A DNA stretch of 53,845 nucleotides, from positions 1-53,845 of the IMG/VR virus record IMGVR_UViG_3300032288_000426. The stretch is one strand, 5' to 3'. Under the pieces are notes generated by a model, which saw nothing but the letters and a program-made list of their open reading frames with translations, ran no database searches and was not told the DNA's origin. The position numbers and the translations under genes were made by a program. Origin of the DNA: a virus. Below, in pieces: positions 4,392 to 31,193 of the stretch; the stretch's first letter is position 1, and each line of letters begins with the position of its first letter.

Positions 4392-5444
4392 TTAACAACT
4401 GCCACCACGCTTCTTGCTAGGGACAACAGTACGAACGACTTCGCGCTCTTTTGTGCTGACAGAGCCCTTGCCGCCTAATGCATCCATGGCTTCACCAAGC
4501 TTACGGGGAATCTTTTTAAGGGTGCTGATCGGGTTTTTTAAAGCCCTCATGAATTGATCACGAGTCTCCCGATTTTCCTTCTCTTCATCCTCATAAAACT
4601 TGTTGTAAGCCATTTCGTTGTCGCTTACACCACCGCCACCATCGTACTTCTTCACCTTGCCGCCCTTTTTATAGGTGCCGGAAAGCTGATTGATACTTAC
4701 AGGTGTTGGGGGACGTTTGTTACCTTGTGGCATTTTGACGGCACGACCATCGTCCTGCACAGCCCCGCCGTCAGCATACTTTTTTGGGGCACCGCCCTTC
4801 TTGTAGCCACCGCCATTACCCTTCTTAACGCCACCAGTAGTTGTACCAGTCACGCCGGGAGGAGTAGTGCTGACATTACCTTCAACGCCACCACCCTTGG
4901 CATACTTAGCTACGCCACCTTTCTTGTAACCACCGCCGTTACCCAACTTCACGCCGCCAGTCTTAGCAGGCGAACGATCAGGGGTTGCTGTGTGCATCTT
5001 GGTCTCAACGTAACCCTCGGCACCTTTTTTAGATGCGCTCACAGGAATTACGCTGCCACCATCTTTGTAGCCACCTTGACCCATGACTACACCACCAGTT
5101 TTCAGACCTTTGTGAGCCTTAGAAGCTGGCATGTCTGCGTGCTTTTTCAAAGCTTCAGGCATACCGCCTTCCTTCATCACAGGGCGTACAGGCATTTTGG
5201 ATGCCATCATAGCCTTGCGACGAGAAGCCATTGAAGGCTTCTTAGGGGATGGGCCTGCGGGCATGGCAGGCATTGAGGACGGCATGGTAGGCGCAGACAT
5301 CGCACCCAGACCACCCATCGCCATTTTCTTGGCTTTAGTGGTCGAACCGCCTTTTTTCATCTTTACCGCACCGCCTTTTGCGAGTTTGAGCTCAACGGTA
5401 GGCTCCGTGGTCATCATTTTGACCATTGGTTTGAATTGGCCCAT
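4392..5444 (-). CDS. Highly basic Gly-Lys repeat protein, virion region
   Basis: A 350-aa protein starting MGQFKPMVK; GAGG lies before the ATG at 5442-5444, and the in-frame upstream TTG would overlap the previous gene. About residues 90-270 are tandem copies of a pattern such as TGGVKLGNGGGYKKGG and YADGGAV, separated by Pro/Thr linkers. The last 80 residues are helical and charged (DEEKENRETRDQF). The extreme Lys/Gly content predicts disorder and binding to DNA or to acidic virion proteins. The same GG motif appears in the 1395-aa and 555-aa proteins. Function unknown; a DNA-condensing internal protein is one possibility. Confidence 0.75.
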   Translation of the reverse strand: MGQFKPMVKMMTTEPTVELKLAKGGAVKMKKGGSTTKAKKMAMGGLGAMSAPTMPSSMPAMPAGPSPKKPSMASRRKAMMASKMPVRPVMKEGGMPEALKKHADMPASKAHKGLKTGGVVMGQGGYKDGGSVIPVSASKKGAEGYVETKMHTATPDRSPAKTGGVKLGNGGGYKKGGVAKYAKGGGVEGNVSTTPPGVTGTTTGGVKKGNGGGYKKGGAPKKYADGGAVQDDGRAVKMPQGNKRPPTPVSINQLSGTYKKGGKVKKYDGGGGVSDNEMAYNKFYEDEEKENRETRDQFMRALKNPISTLKKIPRKLGEAMDALGGKGSVSTKEREVVRTVVPSKKRGGSC

Positions 5445-18143: not shown

Positions 18144-18531
18144 TGGATCCCCTTGCGCGGATAGCAGAGGCGGCTAACTTTGGAGTAAATCCGCACATCA
18201 AGCAACCATCATGTTCATTTTTAGAGAAGTCAACCAATGGCGGAGCATCTTCAATCATTTGCGCCACCTTTTCACGCTCGGCTGCTGCAGCTTTGGTAAT
18301 GCGCTCATCAGCCTGCCAGCCCAGCTCAGTCAGCAGGTCTTCAATGGTGTCGCCATGGCCTGTGGCATAGCCGTGCTCGATCATCCAATGCGCCAACTTC
18401 TCACGCTCGGTTGCGGCAGCGGCCTCCAACATACGGCTGATAACCCGCAACGGGATGGCGTACTCCTGCCCATCAATCGGTGTATCGGGGTGCAAGTCTA
18501 AGAACCTGCGGATGATGTCATCCCGGTTCAT
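18136..18531 (-). CDS. Conserved phage protein with EREK helical repeats
   Basis: A 131-aa protein with two similar helices, AAAATEREKLAHWMIEHG and AAAAEREKVAQMIEDA, and a C-terminal ASAIRARG motif. This pattern is common in small phage proteins that accompany packaging or accessory genes. It has two cysteines in a CLMC arrangement (possible metal site). Coupled to TerS by an ATGA-type overlap. Function unknown. Confidence 0.75.
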   Translation of the reverse strand: MNRDDIIRRFLDLHPDTPIDGQEYAIPLRVISRMLEAAAATEREKLAHWMIEHGYATGHGDTIEDLLTELGWQADERITKAAAAEREKVAQMIEDAPPLVDFSKNEHDGCLMCGFTPKLAASAIRARGSNG

Positions 18532-19040
18532 TTCTTGGCCTGCTTAGTCAGCTCAAGGTTCTGCAGCAGGGTGTCGAAGATCGTGGTCTCCACCGTCATC
18601 GCCAGCGGGTTCTCTTTGTCCCCAGATATGATCTGCCGGTCGCCATACTTCTTCGGGTGCCACTTCGCCAGAAGCTTCAGGCGCATCTCAGCGCGGTTCC
18701 TCTGCCACGTTACATAGCCAGAATCCACAGCCTCCCCAGTCTTAGTCAGGACGTATTCAGGCGGGCTGTCGAGGATCTCCAGCGCCTCCTCAGCAATAGC
18801 GTCTGCACCCTGTTCACGGGCGCGCGCGATGGCTCCTGAAAGTGCTTCGTCGCGCCCCATCCAATCATAGATCCTCGTCCACGCTGGCATATGATCATCC
18901 CGGCATATCTGCCTCAGTGGTTCCCCATTGGAGAGGCGCTCACATATCTCTGCTGCTAGTTCTGGGGTGTACTTTGATGGTCGCCCCATCTTCTTTCGGG
19001 GCTTTGATTGCTCGGCGGCAACTGTGGTGGGATCAGACAT
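18528..19040 (-). CDS. terS: Terminase small subunit
   Basis: A 170-aa protein. A basic N-terminus (KPRKKMGRPSKYTPEL) precedes a helix-turn-helix (about 25-62: AAEICERLSNGEPLRQICRD). A helical core (AREQGADAIAEEALEILDSP) and TWQRNRAEMRLKLLAKWHPK follow, as in Sf6/P22-type small terminases that form rings and recognise the packaging site. It lies at the head of the packaging genes, immediately upstream of TerL with two small genes between. Confidence 0.85.
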   Translation of the reverse strand: MSDPTTVAAEQSKPRKKMGRPSKYTPELAAEICERLSNGEPLRQICRDDHMPAWTRIYDWMGRDEALSGAIARAREQGADAIAEEALEILDSPPEYVLTKTGEAVDSGYVTWQRNRAEMRLKLLAKWHPKKYGDRQIISGDKENPLAMTVETTIFDTLLQNLELTKQAKK

Positions 19041-20442: not shown

Positions 20443-20500
20443 ACCGCGTAGTCGCAGCAAGTCGCACGGCAGCATCCGCTTTCCCCGTGGTTAATGTAAC

Positions 20501-20698
20501 TTAAACTTCTTCAACTGTAACCCTGTACTTCTTGCCGTACCGATCCTCAACGTTGAGGGTCTTCTTGGTGCTCAGGAAGGCTCCAGAAGCCGCCAGATGA
20601 AGCTGTGGGGCTGAAACGCTGGACAGTAGCTTGTCTACGTCATTGGCCTTCAGGTTGCCCCGTATAAGGGCTGCAATGTAGTCGCAATAGGCAAGCAT
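20501..20698 (-). CDS. Small protein, unknown
   Basis: A 65-aa protein with a helical first half (YCDYIAALIRGNLKANDVDK) and a basic beta-type end (NVEDRYGKKYRVTVEEV). Its ATG follows the stop of the 54-aa gene directly (TGAATG), so the genes are cotranslated. No family recognised. Confidence 0.65.
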   Translation of the reverse strand: MLAYCDYIAALIRGNLKANDVDKLLSSVSAPQLHLAASGAFLSTKKTLNVEDRYGKKYRVTVEEV

Positions 20699-20863
20699 TC
20701 AGTCCTCCAGCATCTCGCGTAGGTTCTCAATGGCCTCTTCAGGCGTCGCACCATGCGCACAGGTATCGTCACCGCAGGTGCCCTTGACGTAAGCAACGTA
20801 GGCGCACTGCTTGAACAGGAAAGCGCCGTCAGACTCCCAAGCTTCGTATTCGTATTTAGTCAT
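20699..20863 (-). CDS. Small Cys-containing protein, unknown
   Basis: A 54-aa protein (MTKYEYEAWESDGAFLFKQC...) with three cysteines in the middle (residues 20-35) and a helical acidic tail (EEAIENLREMLED). AGGAGG precedes the ATG at 20861-20863. The frame ends exactly at the ATG of the 65-aa gene. Below 60 aa, supported by SD and spacing. Confidence 0.65.
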   Translation of the reverse strand: MTKYEYEAWESDGAFLFKQCAYVAYVKGTCGDDTCAHGATPEEAIENLREMLED

Positions 20864-20865
20864 GA

Positions 20866-20991
20866 TCAATCCTCCTCGCTGTCGTAGCGGTCATCGTACA
20901 TAGCGTCCAAGCGGGCTTCTTCGCGGCGCTCAAACTCCCAATCAACATGTTTTGCCCATTCTGGCAAGTAAACTGGTGATGTATTTTCCAT
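20866..20991 (-). CDS. Small acidic protein, unknown
   Basis: A 41-aa protein (MENTSPVYLPEWAKHVDWEF) ending in a charged Glu/Arg/Asp helix (EERRDAMYDD-type; DDRYDSEED). Its stop lies 2 bases before the next start. The sequence just upstream, AACTGACCATG, matches the end of the conserved leader used by three other genes, but here a terminator-like hairpin replaces the promoter. Very short, so moderate confidence. Confidence 0.5.
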   Translation of the reverse strand: MENTSPVYLPEWAKHVDWEFERREEARLDAMYDDRYDSEED

Positions 20992-21009
20992 GGTCAGTTT
21001 TCGGAAAAT

Positions 21010-21027
21010 GCCCGGATTGCTCCGGGC
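21010..21027 (-). terminator. Terminator hairpin with GCAA tetraloop
   Basis: The minus strand forms a perfect 7-bp stem, GCCCGGA - GCAA - TCCGGGC, then ATTTTCC. It lies directly after the stop of the 102-aa gene. The GNRA loop and following U-run fit an intrinsic terminator, weak because the U-run is short. Confidence 0.6.
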
Positions 21028-21034
21028 GGGTTAA

Positions 21035-21343
21035 TCAGAAGTTGTAGTCGTGGAACTTACGGGGCTTGTCAGCAAGGTTGTAGCGGCCACCGTGGGCGTC
21101 CTTCCAGCCATGCTTGCCGAGGCGAATACGCTTAACTGGCGCGGTCTCGTCGCTGGTGATGATCCACTTCTGCTGGTTCTGGTTCGAGCAGTGGGCTGAG
21201 AAGCCGCCAACATGGAAATCCAGCTTGACTGAGTTGTCGCGCTCGGCTTTCATAGGACGGATCTCGATGGTCTTGTCGCTGATGACGCGGACAACCTCGT
21301 ATGGGTCAACGTCGCTATACATGCAGTGGTTTGCGTAGTTCAT
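21035..21343 (-). CDS. Conserved small protein driven by leader P1
   Basis: A 102-aa protein starting MNYANHCMYSDVDPYEVVRV; the ATG at 21341-21343 lies behind AAGGAG in the conserved leader, which settles the start (a longer GTG-type frame would begin inside the leader). Basic and beta-type, with KRIRLGKHGWKDAHGG in the second half. No known function. It is the first gene of a short unit ending at the hairpin at 21010-21027. Confidence 0.75.
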   Translation of the reverse strand: MNYANHCMYSDVDPYEVVRVISDKTIEIRPMKAERDNSVKLDFHVGGFSAHCSNQNQQKWIITSDETAPVKRIRLGKHGWKDAHGGRYNLADKPRKFHDYNF

Positions 21344-21365
21344 GGTCAGTTCTCCTTTTCGCATC

Positions 21366-21418
21366 CTGACTAACGTGTCAGTGGTGTAATCTTAGATTAA
21401 ACGATTAGGGGGGGTCAA
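21366..21418 (-). promoter_or_regulatory. Promoter P1 plus 5' hairpin leader
   Basis: The minus strand carries -35 TTGACC (21413-21418), an 18-base spacer and -10 TAAGAT (21389-21394). Seven bases later, at the predicted transcript start, CTGAC-ACGTTA-GTCAG forms a 5-bp hairpin (21366-21381), then GATGCGAAAAGGAGAACTGACC leads to the ATG. The hairpin stem sequence differs from that in P2 and P3 but pairs in the same place. Confidence 0.75.
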
Positions 21419-21437
21419 CCCCCTTTTGCAAATATTT

Positions 21438-22190
21438 TTAAATTATTTTTGGGCGCTGGACAATTGTCTGTTTGACACCTTCACGCTCACCGTGCTCGGC
21501 GACGGTTGCCATCATGCGGATAGCGTCGCCCTTTGAACCGAGGTAGTTGCCACGGTAAACCACGACGTTACCGTTGCAGCGGATGATGTTGATGTGCTTG
21601 ATGCCAAACTGGGTTTCCATGCTGATCACGCGCTCGATGGTGCCTTCGATCTCGATACGGGCTCCGATGCTGCCGATATGGGCGCTGGTAGCGTTTTGCT
21701 GGCGCTTGGCTATCTCACCCTCAACCAAAGCGATTTGGCGCTCTGTGGGCTCTTTCATGCGGTTTGCCATGTCATTGCGAAGCCGAGTCCAGAACTCGCC
21801 GCCCAGACCATCGAGGGCATCGAAGAAAGGCTTGTGCAGGCCGATGAATGCATCTTTGGCCGCCTGATGCTGGGCTTGAATGGCAGCGTGCTCGGCAGCC
21901 TTGGCAGCGGCACGTTTGGCAGCAGCAGCGTCAAGCTTGGCAAGCTGCTCAGCAGTGTACAGAGGGGCGGTCTTAATGCTGGTGAAGCCGGTGTTGTGGC
22001 ATGTCCAGCAGTCAAAGCCAGTGAGGCTGTATGGGCGGTCATTGTGGATGCCCATGATCCACATGCGCTTGCCGTCGATCTCAACACAGCGAGTGCAGGC
22101 GACTTTGTAGGTGTAGGTGGGCTTGCCCTTGAGGCTAGTCTGAACTGCGCCTGTGTACTCAGTGCCGCTACGGGTGAAAAGTTGGGTCAT
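21438..22190 (-). CDS. Zinc-finger plus OB-fold-like protein, probable DNA-binding
   Basis: A 250-aa protein. Cysteine pairs C32xxC35 and C61xxC64 (ACTRC, DCWTC) form a zinc ribbon. An Ala/Lys-rich coiled coil follows (about 80-115). The C-terminal third (GARIEIEGTIERVISMETQ, then EREGVKQTIVQRPKI) has the beta-barrel pattern common in phage and plasmid proteins that bind single-stranded DNA (GVKQT ending). It is the first gene after leader P2. A role in replication or recombination is inferred. Confidence 0.7.
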   Translation of the reverse strand: MTQLFTRSGTEYTGAVQTSLKGKPTYTYKVACTRCVEIDGKRMWIMGIHNDRPYSLTGFDCWTCHNTGFTSIKTAPLYTAEQLAKLDAAAAKRAAAKAAEHAAIQAQHQAAKDAFIGLHKPFFDALDGLGGEFWTRLRNDMANRMKEPTERQIALVEGEIAKRQQNATSAHIGSIGARIEIEGTIERVISMETQFGIKHINIIRCNGNVVVYRGNYLGSKGDAIRMMATVAEHGEREGVKQTIVQRPKII

Positions 22191-22210
22191 GATTCGCTCC
22201 TGTTCGCATC

Positions 22211-22262
22211 CGGTCTCAAGTGACCGTGATGTAATCTTAGGTTAAACAATCATGGGTGTCAA
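22211..22262 (-). promoter_or_regulatory. Promoter P2 plus 5' hairpin leader
   Basis: The minus strand has TTGACA (22257-22262), a 17-base spacer and TAAGAT (22234-22239), an excellent sigma70-type promoter. Seven bases beyond, CGGTC-ACTTGA-GACCG forms a 5-bp hairpin (22211-22226), followed by GATGCGAA and AGGAG before the ATG at 22190. Confidence 0.8.
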
Positions 22263-22281
22263 CACCCCAGAGCAAAATAAT

Positions 22282-22368
22282 TTAAATAATTCCTGCTGCT
22301 ACCAAGACGGCAACAAAGCACGCCATCAAGATGCAGCAGACCCAGACGATGTCATCAACGTCCATCAT
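22282..22368 (-). CDS. Membrane micropeptide, 28 aa
   Basis: MMDVDDIVWVCCILMACFVA followed by VLVAAGII: one transmembrane helix with a short acidic N-terminus. The start overlaps the stop of the 49-aa membrane gene (TGATG-type overlap), indicating coupling. A longer frame to 22491 exists but would read through that gene in another frame. Very short; accepted because of the coupling and hydrophobicity. Confidence 0.5.
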   Translation of the reverse strand: MMDVDDIVWVCCILMACFVAVLVAAGII

Positions 22369-22514
22369 CGGAACCACAGGTAAAAGCCGTGCAGGATCCC
22401 AATGGGGAACATGATAGCCCCGGCAATCAGGAAGCCCCAGAGCCCCTCTGCAAAGCAGGTGAAAATGTGCGTCAGCCACGCAGCGAAACAACCGATACCA
22501 ATAACCCAGCCCAT
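22365..22514 (-). CDS. Two-helix small inner-membrane protein
   Basis: A 49-aa protein (MGWVIGIGCFAAWLTHIFTC, then FAEGLWGFLIAGAIMFPIGI, HGFYLWF). Both hydrophobic halves are predicted transmembrane helices. The pattern WLTHIFTCFAEG...AGAIMFPIGILHG is a recurrent small membrane protein of phages and proteobacteria. GGGGGAATT precedes the ATG. Below 60 aa. Function unknown; superinfection exclusion is one possibility. Confidence 0.7.
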   Translation of the reverse strand: MGWVIGIGCFAAWLTHIFTCFAEGLWGFLIAGAIMFPIGILHGFYLWFR

Positions 22515-22523
22515 AATTCCCCC

Positions 22524-22757
22524 TCAGTTAAGTAAATAATCTTGCCACTGCCCATTGGCAGCAATCTCGTTCCCATACTTCTTGGCCTGATACAGGTTCG
22601 GGAAATACTCCACATCATCCCCGCAGGGATCCCCTTCCCGGTAAACGCTTAGGAAGTAATCTCCGGCCCGTGATTTCTCGACCTTGATGAAGATCTCGTC
22701 ATTGATGGGGAGCAGGTGGACATGCCCCCCTTCATCTCGTTGTGATGTCCAGCTCAT
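22524..22757 (-). CDS. Small protein, unknown
   Basis: A 77-aa mixed alpha/beta protein (HVHLLPINDEIFIKVEKSR, DDVEYFPNLYQAKKYGNEIA). Its sequence shows a strand-rich N-terminus and a helix near the end, compatible with a small DNA-mimic or binding protein, but no family is recognised. It is followed by the membrane genes at 22514. Confidence 0.65.
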   Translation of the reverse strand: MSWTSQRDEGGHVHLLPINDEIFIKVEKSRAGDYFLSVYREGDPCGDDVEYFPNLYQAKKYGNEIAANGQWQDYLLN

Positions 22758-22769
22758 GATGGCTCCCGA

Positions 22770-23078
22770 TTAACGTGAAGTGACTTTGACGGTGAAGACC
22801 GCAGAGGTCTTGGTGTACTTGGCGTAAACGTCAGCACCAAAGTCCTTGATGAATTTTTTGCTGTCGAAGGTAGAGCGATTGGAGTCGCTGTAAGTGGCAC
22901 GGAAAAGATTGCCATCGATAAAGCGCACGCCATCTTTGCCTACTTCCAGTAAGCCATCAGCGCCAGCTTCTTTGATGGAATCCTTGATGGCCTCGGCTTG
23001 CTTGGTGAGATCAGCGATCTGAGCCAGCAGTGTGCCCAGCTTGTCTACTTCGGTGAGTGGAATGTCGTTTGTCTTCAT
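22770..23078 (-). CDS. Conserved phage protein with coiled-coil N-terminus
   Basis: A 102-aa protein. A Leu-heptad helix (LGTLLAQIADLTKQAEAIKD) is followed by a beta-type core (GNLFRATYSDSNRSTFDSKK) and a C-terminal TSAVFTVKVTSR. This pattern (coiled coil, then LFRAT and FDSKKF) is common in phage accessory proteins of unknown role next to recombination genes. Translation starts behind the leader P3 SD (AGGAG). First gene of its unit. Confidence 0.75.
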   Translation of the reverse strand: MKTNDIPLTEVDKLGTLLAQIADLTKQAEAIKDSIKEAGADGLLEVGKDGVRFIDGNLFRATYSDSNRSTFDSKKFIKDFGADVYAKYTKTSAVFTVKVTSR

Positions 23079-23101
23079 GGTCAGTTCTCCTAGTTCGCAT
23101 C

Positions 23102-23154
23102 CGGTCTTGATCGACCGTGAACAGAGTTTAATCCTGACTTAAACGATATGTCAA
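23102..23154 (-). promoter_or_regulatory. Promoter P3 plus 5' hairpin leader
   Basis: The minus strand has TTGACA (23149-23154), a 17-base spacer and TTAAAC (23126-23131). Eight bases later CGGTC-GATCAA-GACCG forms a 5-bp hairpin (23102-23117), followed by GATGCGAACTAGGAGAACTG and the ATG at 23078. Confidence 0.75.
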
Positions 23155-23162
23155 CTACTTTA

Positions 23163-23456
23163 TTAAAATATTTTTTCTTCTTGCTCAAGTGGCAACCCAT
23201 CGGTCAGCAGGCGCTGGATGGTGATGTTCAGAGCGTCGAGCTCGTCCATCTTGCGGATAGCCCACGCCCGCTTGTTCCCATGCCAGCCCATCATTGACCC
23301 TTGGTGGCAGTCATAGCAGAGCGCTACAGTGGTGTACTGCTGGCCTTGATTGATGTGGTGGGCAGAGCTCGGCGGCGGAGCATTGCAGACACTGCAGGGC
23401 AGGCTCTTCACCCGTGCCAGATGCTTGCGATCAGCCGCCGTCAGTTTGTTGTTCAT
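23163..23456 (-). CDS. HNH-type nuclease, Ref-like (RecA-dependent nuclease family)
   Basis: A 97-aa protein with CSVC (C21, C24), AHHINQGQ (H33 H34), CYDCHQGSMMGWHG (C47, C50, H51, H59). This arrangement of zinc ligands plus catalytic His residues is that of phage Ref-type HNH nucleases, which cut DNA at RecA filaments in P1. It lies with other recombination genes. The start overlaps the 110-aa gene stop by 4 bases. Confidence 0.8.
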   Translation of the reverse strand: MNNKLTAADRKHLARVKSLPCSVCNAPPPSSAHHINQGQQYTTVALCYDCHQGSMMGWHGNKRAWAIRKMDELDALNITIQRLLTDGLPLEQEEKIF

Positions 23457-23785
23457 AGGGTGACTTTGCCCTCAACCCGATTGGTGGCCTCCTGAGATCG
23501 CCAGACCTCAACCCTAGCCTGTGCTGCCACCATGTCCCAACGGAGCTTCTCTTCGGCCTCTACGGCCTCCCTAAGCCCCTCTAGTAGCTGGACATACTCC
23601 GGGTGACTGTACGCCTCACGCTCCTGCGCATTGACAGCAGTCTCCATCGACCGCTTCATCAGAATTGCTTTCAAGCTCTTGCGGTACTCTTCCATGTAGA
23701 TACGGTCAGCCTTGGCCTTGGCATAAAACTTCCCATTGTCCCGGATGTAATCGACCGCCCGGTGCGGATCAATATCACGTTCCAT
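23453..23785 (-). CDS. Conserved helical phage protein beside the Ref-like nuclease
   Basis: A 110-aa protein, almost all helix (MERDIDPHRAVDYIRDNGKF, NAQEREAYSHPEYVQLLEGL, AAQARVEVWRSQEATNR). I recognise this family (MERDIDPHKAVDYI...) as recurrent in phage recombination regions. Its function is unknown. The ATG lies behind GGGGG and inside the end of the upstream zinc-ribbon frame. Confidence 0.8.
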   Translation of the reverse strand: MERDIDPHRAVDYIRDNGKFYAKAKADRIYMEEYRKSLKAILMKRSMETAVNAQEREAYSHPEYVQLLEGLREAVEAEEKLRWDMVAAQARVEVWRSQEATNRVEGKVTL

Positions 23786-23945
23786 TGAATTCCCCCTTCA
23801 ATTCCATCTTTAATCGGCAGTCGCCACACACCCAGCGTTGACGCATGCCGTTCTCAATCAGCTTGTACCCGCCGTTCTTTGTCGGCTTCCTTACCCTGCA
23901 ATTGGTGCACAACCTCGGTTCCGATGCTACGTTCTTCAACGACAC
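23775..23945 (-). CDS. Small zinc-ribbon protein, GTG start, overlapping the HTH gene
   Basis: A 56-aa frame from the GTG at 23943-23945: MSLKNVASEP, then CTNC (C13, C16) and WVCGDC (C40, C43), a four-cysteine zinc ribbon with 23 residues between the pairs. It overlaps the end of the HTH gene (to 23854) in another frame and the start of the 110-aa gene. The cysteine pattern is not expected by chance, but the GTG start has no clear SD. Confidence 0.6.
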   Translation of the reverse strand: MSLKNVASEPRLCTNCRVRKPTKNGGYKLIENGMRQRWVCGDCRLKMELKGEFNGT

Positions 23946-24057
23946 GATTGACTATCCTCCTCACCTGCCCTTTGTCCATTTTGTTTTTCTTTGCAATTGC
24001 GCCGATGGACTCGCCGCGCATAAATGCCTGATAGATCTCAGTGTCTAGTGCTTGCAC
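23854..24057 (-). CDS. Small helix-turn-helix protein
   Basis: A 67-aa protein. Residues 8-40 (IYQAFMRGESIGAIAKKNKM, then DKGQVRRIVNRVVEE) form a typical homeodomain-like HTH, and the C-terminus is basic and polar. It overlaps the 61-aa gene start by 20 bases. Probably a regulator or a recombination accessory protein. Confidence 0.7.
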   Translation of the reverse strand: MQALDTEIYQAFMRGESIGAIAKKNKMDKGQVRRIVNRVVEERSIGTEVVHQLQGKEADKERRVQAD

Positions 24058-24223
24058 CTCTGACCCCCATCATCATGTCGGCCATATCGAATGCAGCCTC
24101 AGCAATGAACCTACGGTTGTGTTCGCTTTCCAGTATCTCTGGGTCTACTGCAGCCATCAATCCCTGCAAAGCAAACGCAGCAAACGCACACCGCATCTGT
24201 TCTTCTGTGTCAAACATACTCAT
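24038..24223 (-). CDS. Small helical protein, unknown
   Basis: A 61-aa Met/Ala-rich helical protein (MSMFDTEEQMRCAFAAFALQ, then IAEAAFDMADMMMGVRG). Its ATG overlaps the RuvC-like gene stop, and its stop overlaps the HTH gene. No family recognised. Confidence 0.65.
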   Translation of the reverse strand: MSMFDTEEQMRCAFAAFALQGLMAAVDPEILESEHNRRFIAEAAFDMADMMMGVRGASTRH

Positions 24224-24681
24224 GAGAAAGTCCTCCTCGCATATTCCGCTATCAATAAAGCTTCAGCCTTGCCGTGATCCTTCTTCAGTAAAAGCTTCGC
24301 CTGTGGGAAAGCAATCCTCGCAGCAGCAAGTGATCTTTCTTTCTCTGAGTTCAGGCTCATGGCTTTTTTCCATACTTGAGGTATAACGTAAAACACCCGA
24401 TCAGCAGAGAGTTCAGCAACAGCGCCAATAGAACCAAAGGCACGCATAAAACGCCCACTGCTAACAAGCCCTTGTTTGGGCATGACGCCCACCTGCTCAA
24501 TACAGATCGCATAGTCATCTCCCGGAGGCACCATCCTTAGAATTAACTGCTTCAAGCTTCTTGCGTCAATCTTGTCACCAACAGACTCAATGTCCTCTGC
24601 AGCAATGAACCCACCGTTATGATCAATCGCCGCAATAGCCCCAGAACGAAGTCCGGGGTCAACACCAATCCAGATAGTCAT
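24220..24681 (-). CDS. RuvC-like Holliday junction resolvase
   Basis: A 153-aa protein starting MTIWIGVDPGLRSGA; this start gives an ATGA overlap with the upstream gene and removes a 20-residue non-conserved extension. Acidic residues at D8 (GVDPG), E62 (CIEQVG), D135 and E140 (KKDHGKAEALLIAEY) match the RuvC active-site order. It would resolve recombination or branched replication intermediates before packaging. Confidence 0.85.
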   Translation of the reverse strand: MTIWIGVDPGLRSGAIAAIDHNGGFIAAEDIESVGDKIDARSLKQLILRMVPPGDDYAICIEQVGVMPKQGLVSSGRFMRAFGSIGAVAELSADRVFYVIPQVWKKAMSLNSEKERSLAAARIAFPQAKLLLKKDHGKAEALLIAEYARRTFS

Positions 24682-24962
24682 TGCCGTTGTATAGGTATGC
24701 GATTGAGTATTGCATTGGCTGCATTCTTCAATGCCGTGCAAAGCTCACCTTCTTCTTCATCGTCTGCAAGCTTCATCACCAACTCAGCACACGCTTCACG
24801 CTCAATTCGAATGGCCGTCTTTGTGGTTTCAATTGCCACCGTCATGATCTCAGCCTTTGCCAGCACCAGAGCATCATCAAATTCTTTTTGTGTAAAGACC
24901 TGCACGGTGCCACTGCTTGCCAAGAACTGCTTTTGGAAGTTGCTTAACTCACTCATCTCCAA
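24678..24962 (-). CDS. Helical phage protein, unknown
   Basis: A 94-aa protein, mostly helical, with IEREACAEL in the middle, a motif shared by many small phage accessory proteins. The start is MEMSEL or the internal MSEL two residues later. Coupled to RuvC (ATGA). Function unknown. Confidence 0.65.
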   Translation of the reverse strand: MEMSELSNFQKQFLASSGTVQVFTQKEFDDALVLAKAEIMTVAIETTKTAIRIEREACAELVMKLADDEEEGELCTALKNAANAILNRIPIQRQ

Positions 24963-25144
24963 TCCCCTTTCTCACCTCTGTTGCCCTTCGCCCATTGATC
25001 CTTGACATCAGCCCTAAGCTTCTCGTCATTATGATTTTTTTCCCACATTCGCAGAAAGTCATGAGCTTTGTCTCGGTCTTTGATCCGCATTCGGATAACC
25101 TCTCGAACGAGAGAAGTCCATATCTCGGTTTGTACATCGTTCAA
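24953..25144 (-). CDS. Small charged helical protein coupled to the helicase
   Basis: A 63-aa protein (MNDVQTEIWTSLVREVIRMR, DRDKAHDFLRMWEKNH). The start overlaps the helicase stop (ATGA), and this frame is preferred over the alternative frame at 24949-25137, which lacks coupling and has chance-like Cys/Ser content. Could be a helicase-associated factor; no family recognised. Confidence 0.7.
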   Translation of the reverse strand: MNDVQTEIWTSLVREVIRMRIKDRDKAHDFLRMWEKNHNDEKLRADVKDQWAKGNRGEKGDWR

Positions 25145-26097
25145 AAATCACCTTTCTGATCAAACGCTAATGGTAGCCCATTAAACTTGTCGATGAACTG
25201 CTGACTGTCACCGTGAAAATAAAATTCAAACCACGGCTCACGCTCACCGTTTCGTTGCTTCTCGCACATCAGGTACGCATCAGGCGTCATTGGATCAACA
25301 TCCTCACCACGCTCCATGCTGTGCTGCTTTTTCTTATTGCGCCACAGAATCAGGACATTGTCCACCTGATCTGTGATTGATGACGAGCCACGGAGATCTG
25401 ACTTGCTCGGTCTTACCTCTTCGCTGGCAAGCTTTCTGATGTGATGCACCAGATGAATGTGAATGTCCTGATCACGAGCAATCGCTGTCAGCTTGTCCAC
25501 AAAGTTCTTCTGCTCGTTGTAGCTGTCTTCGCCCGGCACGCACTTCATCAGGCTGTCAACGAATACATGCTGCACACCTAGCTTAGTCGCGCAATGGTGG
25601 CAGACCGCCTCGATCATCTGAGCATTGACCGTGCCCTGCTGGTCGTACAGGTACAGCTTCTTGTCTACAAAGATCTTGAACCTGCCATAGGCGTCCCGCT
25701 TCTGTGAATCAGGCGTCTGGACGTAGTTGTTGGACTCCAGAGACTTCCCGGCAAACTGCCTAATCATCCGCTTCAAGGTGATCTTCGGCTTCATCTCAAA
25801 GCTAGCTATGCAGATCTTCTGACCCTGCTTCATCAGACCCAAGGCAACCTGCCCGGTCATCAGGGACTTGCCCGAACCATTGCTGCCAGCCCACACCGTC
25901 ACCTCACCAGGTCGGAAGGCAAAGCTGTCCATCGTAGTGCTCCAAGGCAACAAAACAGATCTGTCCACCGGAGGGTTGACCAGTTCCTCTTCAAGCTCAT
26001 CCACCCAGACACGGGCTTCTTTGACCTTGGCCTCATGGTCAGTCATCGCCAGATAGGCGTCGAAGTCAATATCGTCATCACTCAGGTACATAGCCAT
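25141..26097 (-). CDS. DnaB-type replicative helicase (RecA-like core only)
   Basis: A 318-aa protein. Walker A GSNGSGKS (71-78), H1a SFEM (E101), Walker B HVFVD (177-181), IHLVHHIRK (214-222) and the DnaB-type arginine-finger region SDLRGSSSITDQ then NVLILWRN (233-253) are all present. It lacks an N-terminal primase or DnaB linker domain, so it resembles a stand-alone helicase core such as the C-terminal half of T7 gp4. It would unwind DNA at the fork. The start is either of two in-frame ATGs (MAM). Confidence 0.9.
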   Translation of the reverse strand: MAMYLSDDDIDFDAYLAMTDHEAKVKEARVWVDELEEELVNPPVDRSVLLPWSTTMDSFAFRPGEVTVWAGSNGSGKSLMTGQVALGLMKQGQKICIASFEMKPKITLKRMIRQFAGKSLESNNYVQTPDSQKRDAYGRFKIFVDKKLYLYDQQGTVNAQMIEAVCHHCATKLGVQHVFVDSLMKCVPGEDSYNEQKNFVDKLTAIARDQDIHIHLVHHIRKLASEEVRPSKSDLRGSSSITDQVDNVLILWRNKKKQHSMERGEDVDPMTPDAYLMCEKQRNGEREPWFEFYFHGDSQQFIDKFNGLPLAFDQKGDF

Positions 26098-27186: not shown

Positions 27187-27387
27187 CTAGCCGAAAATGT
27201 CGGCACGCAAGGCTTTTCTGCTGACCTTGCCTTTTGTCATGCCGCTAATCGCCACAGCCAGTGCTGGGCTTGGCAACTCCTTGCCAGAGACGATCAACGA
27301 CAACCACGTTTTGCTAATGTTCAGGGCACGAGCCATAGCGGCCTTAGATCCCCGTGGCTGGGAAGAAAAGTATTCTTGTAGAGTCAT
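27187..27387 (-). CDS. Cro-like repressor (YdaS-type HTH)
   Basis: A 66-aa protein starting MTLQEYFSSQPRGSKAAMAR with AAGGA before the ATG; a longer frame to 27411 is not supported. SKAAMARALNISKTWLSLI forms the HTH recognition helix, as in YdaS/Cro proteins. It is encoded leftward from a promoter that is divergent from the rightward early operon, the standard regulatory arrangement. Confidence 0.8.
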   Translation of the reverse strand: MTLQEYFSSQPRGSKAAMARALNISKTWLSLIVSGKELPSPALAVAISGMTKGKVSRKALRADIFG

Positions 27388-27410
27388 AGTGAATCCTTGT
27401 TGAATGCCCA

Positions 27411-27439
27411 ATTACACCACGATAAAAAAAATTGCGCAA
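27411..27439 (-). promoter_or_regulatory. Leftward promoter for the Cro-like gene
   Basis: The minus strand has -35 TTGCGC (27434-27439), a 17-base A/T-rich spacer and -10 TGTAAT (27411-27416). The start would fall near 27404, giving a short leader to the SD and ATG at 27387. Confidence 0.6.
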
Positions 27440-27443
27440 GAAC

Positions 27444-27473
27444 TTGTAATGCACAATTAAATGTTGTATTGTG
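27444..27473 (+). promoter_or_regulatory. Rightward early promoter with overlapping inverted-repeat operator
   Basis: The plus strand has -35 TTGTAA (27444-27449), a 17-base spacer and -10 TATTGT (27467-27472). The 22-bp inverted repeat CACAAT-N10-ATTGTG (27452-27473) overlaps the spacer and the -10 box, so a bound Cro-like dimer would block rightward transcription. CAAGAACTTG just upstream is a second small palindrome. Confidence 0.6.
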
Positions 27474-30980: not shown

Positions 30981-31193
30981 ATGTACCTAGCGCATCCGCT
31001 GCTGGATTTTTTGAAGAAGGAATACGGGCTGAAGAATGACGCAGCTTTGGCGAAGGCGCTAGGTATCAAGCCTCCGACCATCAGTAAGATCCGTGCCAAC
31101 AGAAACGTTGTCAGCGCGGAGATGAAGATCATCATCCACAAGAAAACCGGGATGTCGATTGAAGACATTGAAAGCTTTTTGGGGGAGAAATGA
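30981..31193 (+). CDS. HTH regulator, Cro/C1-like
   Basis: A 70-aa protein with a Cro/C1-type HTH (KNDAALAKALGIKPPTISKI) in the middle and a helical end (MSIEDIESFLGEK). AAGGAG precedes the ATG. It is the second repressor-like protein in the genome and could control the rightward operon or a late switch. Confidence 0.75.
   Translation: MYLAHPLLDFLKKEYGLKNDAALAKALGIKPPTISKIRANRNVVSAEMKIIIHKKTGMSIEDIESFLGEK

What the first reader, a model, noticed from the sequence alone, without database searches (positions are those of the whole stretch)
21366..23154. Three promoter plus 5'-hairpin leaders with covarying stems
Seen at 21366-21418, 22211-22262 and 23102-23154: a good -35/-10 with 17-18 base spacing, then 7-8 bases on a 5-bp stem with a 6-nt loop, then GATGCGAA and an AGGAG site. 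The stems are CGGTC/GACCG twice and CTGAC/GTCAG once, so the pairing is kept while sequence changes. Because the hairpin begins about where transcription should start, it would cap the mRNA 5' end (stability) or act as an operator. It may be a family of early leader elements of this phage.
Basis: seen in the sequence. Interest (0 to 1): 0.75.

Follow-up and report, generated by a model that had tools for sequence, protein, structure and literature searches.

The report
Repressor-controlled phage promoters with 5' hairpins
Phages of a large uncultured freshwater and marine group start several of their genes from look-alike promoters that carry a repressor-binding site and give each messenger RNA a small hairpin at its very tip, and the hairpin's pairing is kept while its letters change, which points to a working RNA structure that probably protects the message.

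Summary
Three minus-strand modules at exactly the stated places carry a -35, a -10 and, 7 nt later, a 5-bp hairpin with a 6-nt loop, then GATGCGAA, AGGAG and ATG. It is not chance. Scans of IMG/VR with promoter-only patterns gave 148 distinct instances, most with a hairpin at the same offset but with many different stems. The stems covary: each 5' arm finds its own complement in 44 of 81 distinct leaders, against a mean of 15.8 (maximum 26) when arms are permuted. G-U intermediates occur too.

The same palindrome lies in front of a small YdaS/Cro-type gene (27187-27387, minus strand) in this and related phages. That protein is therefore the likely repressor of all three modules. The palindrome takes two registers relative to the -10, but the hairpin stays about 7 nt from the -10. 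It is therefore tied to the transcript 5' end and is not the operator. GATGCGAA is local, not general.

Best reading: repressor-controlled promoters whose transcripts start with pppA plus a hairpin that hinders 5'-end-dependent decay. Decay protection is inferred. New variant of a known kind.

The parts
21413..21418 (-). copy 1: -35 TTGACC
21384..21402 (-). copy 1: 19-bp palindromic operator GTTTAATCTAAGATTACAC (register A)
21389..21394 (-). copy 1: -10 TAAGAT, inside the operator centre
21366..21381 (-). copy 1: 5' hairpin CTGAC/GTCAG; predicted +1 = A at 21382
   Evidence: start site inferred
21358..21365 (-). copy 1: GATGCGAA
21352..21356 (-). copy 1: AGGAG ribosome-binding site
21035..21343 (-). 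gene after copy 1 (102 aa, phrog_19789, unknown function)
22257..22262 (-). copy 2: -35 TTGACA
22229..22247 (-). copy 2: operator GTTTAACCTAAGATTACAT (register A)
22234..22239 (-). copy 2: -10 TAAGAT
22211..22226 (-). copy 2: 5' hairpin CGGTC/GACCG; predicted +1 = A at 22227
   Evidence: start site inferred
22203..22210 (-). copy 2: GATGCGAA
22197..22201 (-). copy 2: AGGAG
21438..22190 (-). gene after copy 2 (250 aa, phrog_3628, unknown function)
23149..23154 (-). copy 3: -35 TTGACA
23126..23144 (-). copy 3: operator GTTTAAGTCAGGATTAAAC (register B)
23125..23130 (-). copy 3: -10 TAAACT, in the right half of the operator
23102..23117 (-). copy 3: 5' hairpin CGGTC/GACCG; predicted +1 = A at 23118
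   Evidence: start site inferred
23094..23101 (-). copy 3: GATGCGAA
23087..23091 (-). copy 3: AGGAG
22770..23078 (-). gene after copy 3 (102 aa, phrog_6244, unknown function; 44 viral relatives)
27187..27387 (-). candidate repressor: 66-aa YdaS/Cro-type helix-turn-helix protein
   Evidence: PF15943 6.5e-9, phrog_35 transcriptional repressor, 30 viral relatives
27399..27417 (-). operator-like site GTGTAATTGGGCATTCAAC just upstream of the repressor gene
   Evidence: (1 mismatch on the + strand)
27444..27462 (-). second, weaker operator-like site ATTTAATTGTGCATTACAA

Best explanation
Each copy is a portable expression module. (1) A sigma-70 promoter drives one gene or a short gene run. (2) A 19-bp palindrome (GTTTAA-N7-TTAAAC) over the spacer and -10 is the operator of the phage's own YdaS/Cro-type protein (27187-27387, minus strand), which also has such sites in front of its own gene; when that protein builds up it shuts all modules and itself. 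(3) Transcription starts at the A 7 nt after the -10, so the mRNA begins pppA followed at once by a stem-loop. With one unpaired 5' nucleotide, the end is a poor substrate for RppH and for 5'-end-dependent RNase E, so the short leader is stabilised while the Shine-Dalgarno stays open. Shown by sequence: the promoter pattern, the palindrome, its presence before the repressor gene, the covarying hairpin, and its fixed distance from the -10. Inferred: the start site, repressor binding, and mRNA stabilisation.
For: Promoter-only scans of IMG/VR gave 148 distinct instances. A perfect stem of 5 bp or more at the fixed offset: 23 of 35 non-redundant type A (shuffle mean 3.3, max 8 of 200) and 23 of 39 type B (6.7, max 12). 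Covariation: own-arm complement in 44 of 81 distinct leaders against permuted mean 15.8, max 26 of 2000. On 16 same-geometry leaders, 95% of pair cells paired against 77.9% shuffled, covariation 0.437 against 0.184, 0 of 500 shuffles as high, slides by 1-3 columns at most 0.195; one pair is G-C in 10 and G-U in 4. Two registers: operator positions 9-14 read TAnnnT in 49 of 51 type A and none of 97 type B, yet the first paired base lies 7 nt after the -10 in 29 of 41 A and 40 of 74 B, the commonest value in both. Repressor: operator-like sites within 140 nt upstream of 13 of 24 distinct homologues (shuffle mean 2.55, max 6 of 100). In 4 of 18 records an operator pair 33 bp apart, found from the pattern alone, lies directly upstream of the homologous gene, 4 of 4 inspected. 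YdaS of E. coli prophage CP-933P acts like Cro, and the palindromes in the region it and PaaR2 protect have half-site GTTTAGTAA (PMC8630535, passages). Rationale for stability: reference titles on 5' stem-loops (ompA, papA) and the need of B. subtilis RppH for at least two unpaired 5' nucleotides (PMC3997798, passages).
Against: No transcript 5' ends, binding data or half-lives exist here. Some modules lack the hairpin: L013 5888, L085, L144/L200/L206, L173, L182 and L212 in type A; L070, L073, L089 and L098 in type B; the last four may be chance promoters. So the hairpin is not obligatory. Some stems are only 4 bp or weak (-3.9 to -5 kcal/mol). In part of the group the apical sequence GCAA is kept over different stems (28 of 41 CTGAC, 5 of 5 TCGAC, 3 of 3 CTCAC, 2 of 2 CTGGC, 2 of 2 CTGGA), which is more than a plain cap needs. 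In copies 2 and 3 the free-energy fold also makes a weak second helix that touches the linker or AGGAG. The protein-selected ortholog set gives a weaker covariation result (own 5/5: 10 of 24, permuted mean 4.9, max 10). Eleven of 24 homologous repressor genes have no site within 2 mismatches.
Confidence: 0.55

Rival explanations
1. The hairpin is the target of a phage or host RNA-binding protein (translational repressor, or an antitermination factor acting near the 5' end like N at boxB or HK022 put RNA).
For: Apical GCAA is kept over several different stems in one branch. Position at the very start of the transcript resembles put (recalled). Several modules per genome could share one factor.
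Against: The window's three loops differ (ACGTTA, ACTTGA, GATCAA) and CGGTC, CTATC, CAGTC and CTGC stems have unrelated loops. No boxA excess in the window (33 matches against 33.2 expected) and none next to the hairpins. No hit to any Rfam family.
Confidence: 0.2
2. The inverted repeat at +2 is a second DNA operator for another regulator.
For: It is an inverted repeat next to the promoter; two helix-turn-helix genes exist in the window (27187-27387 and 30981-31193).
Against: Half-site sequence varies freely, even within one contig (L086: TCGAC, CTGC and CTGAC), and G-U pairs (4 of 16 at one position) keep RNA pairing but break DNA symmetry.
Confidence: 0.08
3. The leaders are copies of one cassette and the hairpin is a passenger; similarity reflects duplication and descent.
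For: Whole modules are clearly homologous and a few lack the hairpin without losing the gene start.
Against: Drift would break pairing; instead arms change together, for example GCACTGAA/TTCGGTGC against GCGCTGAA/TTCGGCGC before what looks like the same gene (same first bases, ATGGACAAGAT) in L017 and L030.
Confidence: 0.07
4. The hairpin acts in initiation or early elongation (promoter escape, pausing) or keeps the ribosome-binding site open, rather than in decay.
For: It lies within the first about 20 nt, tied to the -10, and does not itself take in AGGAG in copies 1-3.
Against: Nothing here separates it from the decay model.
Confidence: 0.1

Closest known systems
5'-terminal stem-loops that stabilise mRNA (E. 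coli ompA, papA; T4 gene 32 leader)
   Same: Hairpin at or next to the 5' end, upstream of a ribosome-binding site (papers seen only as reference titles and cited passages).
   Different: Those are single leaders; here the hairpin is a repeated part of a repressor-controlled module, with a different stem in front of each gene. Stability is not measured.
SAS/ESAS repeats of cluster K mycobacteriophages (PMC3203893, passages)
   Same: Repeated elements at the starts of a subset of non-structural genes, half of them with an inverted repeat just upstream.
   Different: SAS is a conserved 13-bp sequence at the ribosome-binding site and ESAS repeats are sequence-conserved 17-mers; here pairing is kept without sequence, plus a promoter and operator. 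The 13-mer is not enriched in the window (1 match, 0.91 expected).
YdaS/PaaR2 switch of E. coli prophage CP-933P (PMC8630535, passages)
   Same: A YdaS-family Cro analogue and GTTTA-type palindromes over promoters.
   Different: 18-bp sites in the immunity region and a nearby promoter there; 19-bp sites over several distant promoters here; no 5' hairpins in the passages read.
Dispersed operators/stoperators of cluster A mycobacteriophages (PMC9283540, PMC6550527; search listing only)
   Same: One phage repressor with sites dispersed across the genome.
   Different: Stoperators are asymmetric and stop elongation; these are palindromes inside promoters.
Bacteriophage boxB and put RNAs (recalled)
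   Same: Small hairpins in early phage transcripts.
   Different: No boxA, no common loop, and the hairpin starts at about +2.

Membership tests
5'-terminal mRNA-stabilising stem-loop | hairpin within a few nt of the mRNA 5' end | tested here: inconclusive
   First paired base 7 nt after the -10 in 29 of 41 and 40 of 74 distinct leaders; the start site itself is predicted, not mapped
5'-terminal mRNA-stabilising stem-loop | pairing, not sequence, conserved | tested here: met
5'-terminal mRNA-stabilising stem-loop | longer mRNA half-life, lost when the stem is opened | not testable with these tools
   needs decay measurements
YdaS/Cro-type phage repressor with its operators | protein in the family | tested here: met
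   PF15943 35.9 bits, cut-off 30; phrog_35 transcriptional repressor 6.6e-7
YdaS/Cro-type phage repressor with its operators | palindromic sites over its own promoter region | tested here: met
   13 of 24 distinct homologues; 4 of 4 inspected strict pairs
YdaS/Cro-type phage repressor with its operators | protein binds the sites | not testable with these tools
   needs EMSA or footprinting
cluster K SAS/ESAS | 13-bp GGGATAGGAGCCC at start codons | tested here: not met
   1 match with 2 mismatches in the window, 0.91 expected
lambda nut / HK022 put antitermination | boxA next to the hairpin | tested here: not met
   no match within 1 mismatch in the three leaders; window total equals chance (boxA consensus recalled)
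any Rfam family | covariance-model match | tested here: not met
   0 at gathering in the window; 0 with E up to 1 in 20800-23800

The most novel reading that the evidence does not exclude
A very widespread uncultured phage group carries a standard gene-expression cassette in which a dispersed Cro/YdaS regulon and a structured, freely diverging 5' RNA cap are combined: the phage protects selected mRNAs from 5'-end-dependent decay by a hairpin built in at +2, or marks them for a shared RNA-binding factor, as a genome-wide strategy rather than for one gene.
Probability: 0.4. Interest if true: 0.7.

Novelty: new variant of a known kind. Interest (0 to 1): 0.55.

Why it matters
5'-terminal hairpins are known from single leaders. 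Here they recur in many phage genomes, in several genes per genome, at a fixed place relative to the -10 and with pairing conserved across many sequences. That is natural evidence that phages use a 5' hairpin as a general part of gene expression. It also gives the likely repressor and operator of an uncultured phage group, so its regulon can be predicted from sequence, and supplies dozens of natural short leaders to test in the laboratory.

Tried and rejected
Whole-leader similarity search in named phages: no match for 20500-24500. Named phages with the downstream protein: only two; Limnohabitans phage DC33 shows no module upstream of that gene, and Phage zth2-2 has a promoter-like TTGACT and a possible imperfect hairpin that I did not pursue.

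GATGCGAA as family signature: rejected. The hairpin+GATGCGAA pattern found 8 stretches in IMG/VR, 7 with the promoter, while most relatives have other linkers.

A first promoter regular expression was too strict and found only 2 distinct sites; replaced.

MAFFT alignment of 52 variable-loop leaders (A2): the 3' arms were misaligned, so it was not used; 17 rows that I had marked by eye as hairpin-less were left out of its input and of nothing else. A first geometry filter had a counting error and was replaced. For A3 I took 16 of the 29 leaders, by the rule AC[GT]G at the 5' arm, not by pairing.

A first distance count folded nucleotides upstream of the predicted start and was replaced. Shift controls are high at -25 to -30 nt because the operator itself is palindromic. 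The hairpin call by minimum free energy is lenient: shuffles reach 11.8 of 30 and 13.3 of 31 on average against 24 and 25 observed; one search uses the same kind of call.

Host prophages: a pattern scan of 399 genomes of the order of the Limnohabitans MAG matched in 6; two matches are phage-like contigs in that MAG; the five other single matches were not inspected. The MAG placement is binning, so the host is only suggested.

A variable-loop covariance model and structure prediction were not made; the permutation test and pair count answered the question.

Full report
OBSERVATION. Each has -35, 17-18 nt, -10, 7 nt, a 5-bp stem with a 6-nt loop, GATGCGAA, AGGAG and ATG. They stand before genes 21035-21343, 21438-22190 and 22770-23078, all of unknown function, between replication genes (helicase 25141-26097, resolvase 24220-24741) and the small terminase gene 18528-19040. 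A mechanical search for promoter plus 5-bp hairpin finds these three and nothing else in the window; shuffles give 0.40 on average and at most 3 in 60.

Over spacer and -10 lies a 19-bp imperfect palindrome, GTTTAA-N7-TTA[AC]A[CT]. It has two registers. In copies 1 and 2 (type A) the -10 sits in the palindrome centre and the hairpin begins 2 nt after it; in copy 3 (type B) the -10 is its right half and the hairpin begins 8 nt after it. Across 148 instances, palindrome positions 9-14 read TAnnnT in 49 of 51 type A and 0 of 97 type B. The -35 spacing was part of the search patterns, so it is not evidence; the TA and the hairpin were not.

RELATIVES. The gene after copy 3 has 44 relatives in IMG/VR, most with the same kind of leader but other stems, e.g. 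CCGAC/GTCGG, TCGAC/GTCGA, CGGAC/GTCCG. A perfect stem of at least 5 bp at the fixed offset was found in 23 of 35 (shuffle mean 3.3) and 23 of 39 (6.7) non-redundant instances.

COVARIATION. Of 148 instances, 137 had an anchoring CA (11 dropped), giving 81 distinct leaders with 17 different 5' arms. The arm's own complement is present in 44 of 81; with arms permuted among leaders the mean is 15.8 and the maximum 26 in 2000. On 16 leaders of the window's geometry, 95% of pair cells pair, 13 cells are changed on both sides, and no shuffle of 500 reaches the observed covariation score; sliding the partner by 1-3 columns drops pairing to 15-43%. One pair is G-C in 10 and G-U in 4 leaders, the intermediate expected of an RNA stem. 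In orthologs picked by protein alone the trend is the same but weaker: 24 usable of 34 distinct, own 5/5 in 10 (permuted mean 4.9, max 10), at least 4/5 in 23 (16.7, max 22).

POSITION. Folding from the sixth base after the -10, the first paired base lies 7 nt after the -10 in 29 of 41 type A and 40 of 74 type B distinct leaders, the commonest value in both, although the two types differ by 6 nt relative to the palindrome. The hairpin thus keeps its place relative to the transcription start. A sigma-70 start at the A before the stem (established knowledge) would leave one unpaired nucleotide.

REPRESSOR. A 66-aa helix-turn-helix protein (27187-27387, minus strand) matches YdaS (PF15943, 6.5e-9) and a phage transcriptional-repressor family. 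Of 24 distinct upstream regions of its 30 viral relatives, 13 hold an operator-like site within 2 mismatches (shuffle mean 2.55, max 6 of 100). In 18 whole records searched with the palindrome (all matched), 4 have a strict pair 33 bp apart, and in all 4 that pair lies between divergent genes immediately upstream of the homologous gene. YdaS of CP-933P is a Cro analogue, and the palindromes in the DNA protected by YdaS and PaaR2 have half-site GTTTAGTAA (PMC8630535, passages). A more distant relative, MW202545, has a 45%-identical protein and palindromes with changed half-sites, ATCTAA/TTAGAC, at two places and a weaker one near its repressor gene, as expected if operator and repressor change together (suggestive only).

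MECHANISM. Best supported: repressor-controlled promoters with built-in 5' hairpin caps. Decay in bacteria often starts at the 5' end; the review consulted states that B. subtilis RppH needs at least two unpaired 5' nucleotides, and its reference list names 5' stem-loop stabilisers (PMC3997798, passages). PMC8948821 (passages) cites a 5' CUUCGG hairpin that stabilises T4 gene 32 mRNA. Stabilisation here is inferred. Against a pure cap: some modules lack the hairpin, some stems are weak, and in one branch the apical GCAA is kept over different stems, so a binding protein remains possible.

NOVELTY. No Rfam match; the cluster K repeat and boxA are not enriched. My literature searches listed no paper on such a module as far as titles and abstract starts show; that covers one open library only. 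I call it a new variant of a known kind.

Noticed in passing
L252 (MW202545.1) 4740-4758, minus strand: Same layout with changed operator half-sites (ATCTAA/TTAGAC), TTGACA upstream and a long hairpin (CTCTCCTCA...TGAGGAGAG) right after the promoter that takes in the ribosome-binding site, unlike the window's hairpins.
   Followed up: partly
window 21406-21428 and 22254-22267: In copies 1 and 2 the -35 lies inside a G/C palindrome (GGGGGTTGACCCCC, GGGTGTTGACACCC); the first reads as a terminator-like site on the + strand.
   Followed up: no
upstream of the -35 in many relatives, e.g. L003, L010, L024, L032: A recurring TTAGGG-N-CCCTA-like dyad followed by an A/T-rich AAAATATTT stretch, possibly an UP element plus another site; the window's copies have only the A/T-rich part.
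   Followed up: no
L085, L144, L200, L206, L212 and L257 14117: Modules with the same promoter but no hairpin: the leader goes from CA straight to TCAACAGCGAA or TCAACAACACGGAGG, as if the hairpin were a removable insert.
   Followed up: partly
PQ492659.1 (L218): Limnohabitans phage DC33, 39 kb, is filed under Inoviridae in its record, which does not fit its size.
   Followed up: no
window 30981-31193 (+): A second small helix-turn-helix gene (Phage_CI_repr, 4.6e-8) on the other strand; it could compete for the same operators.
   Followed up: no
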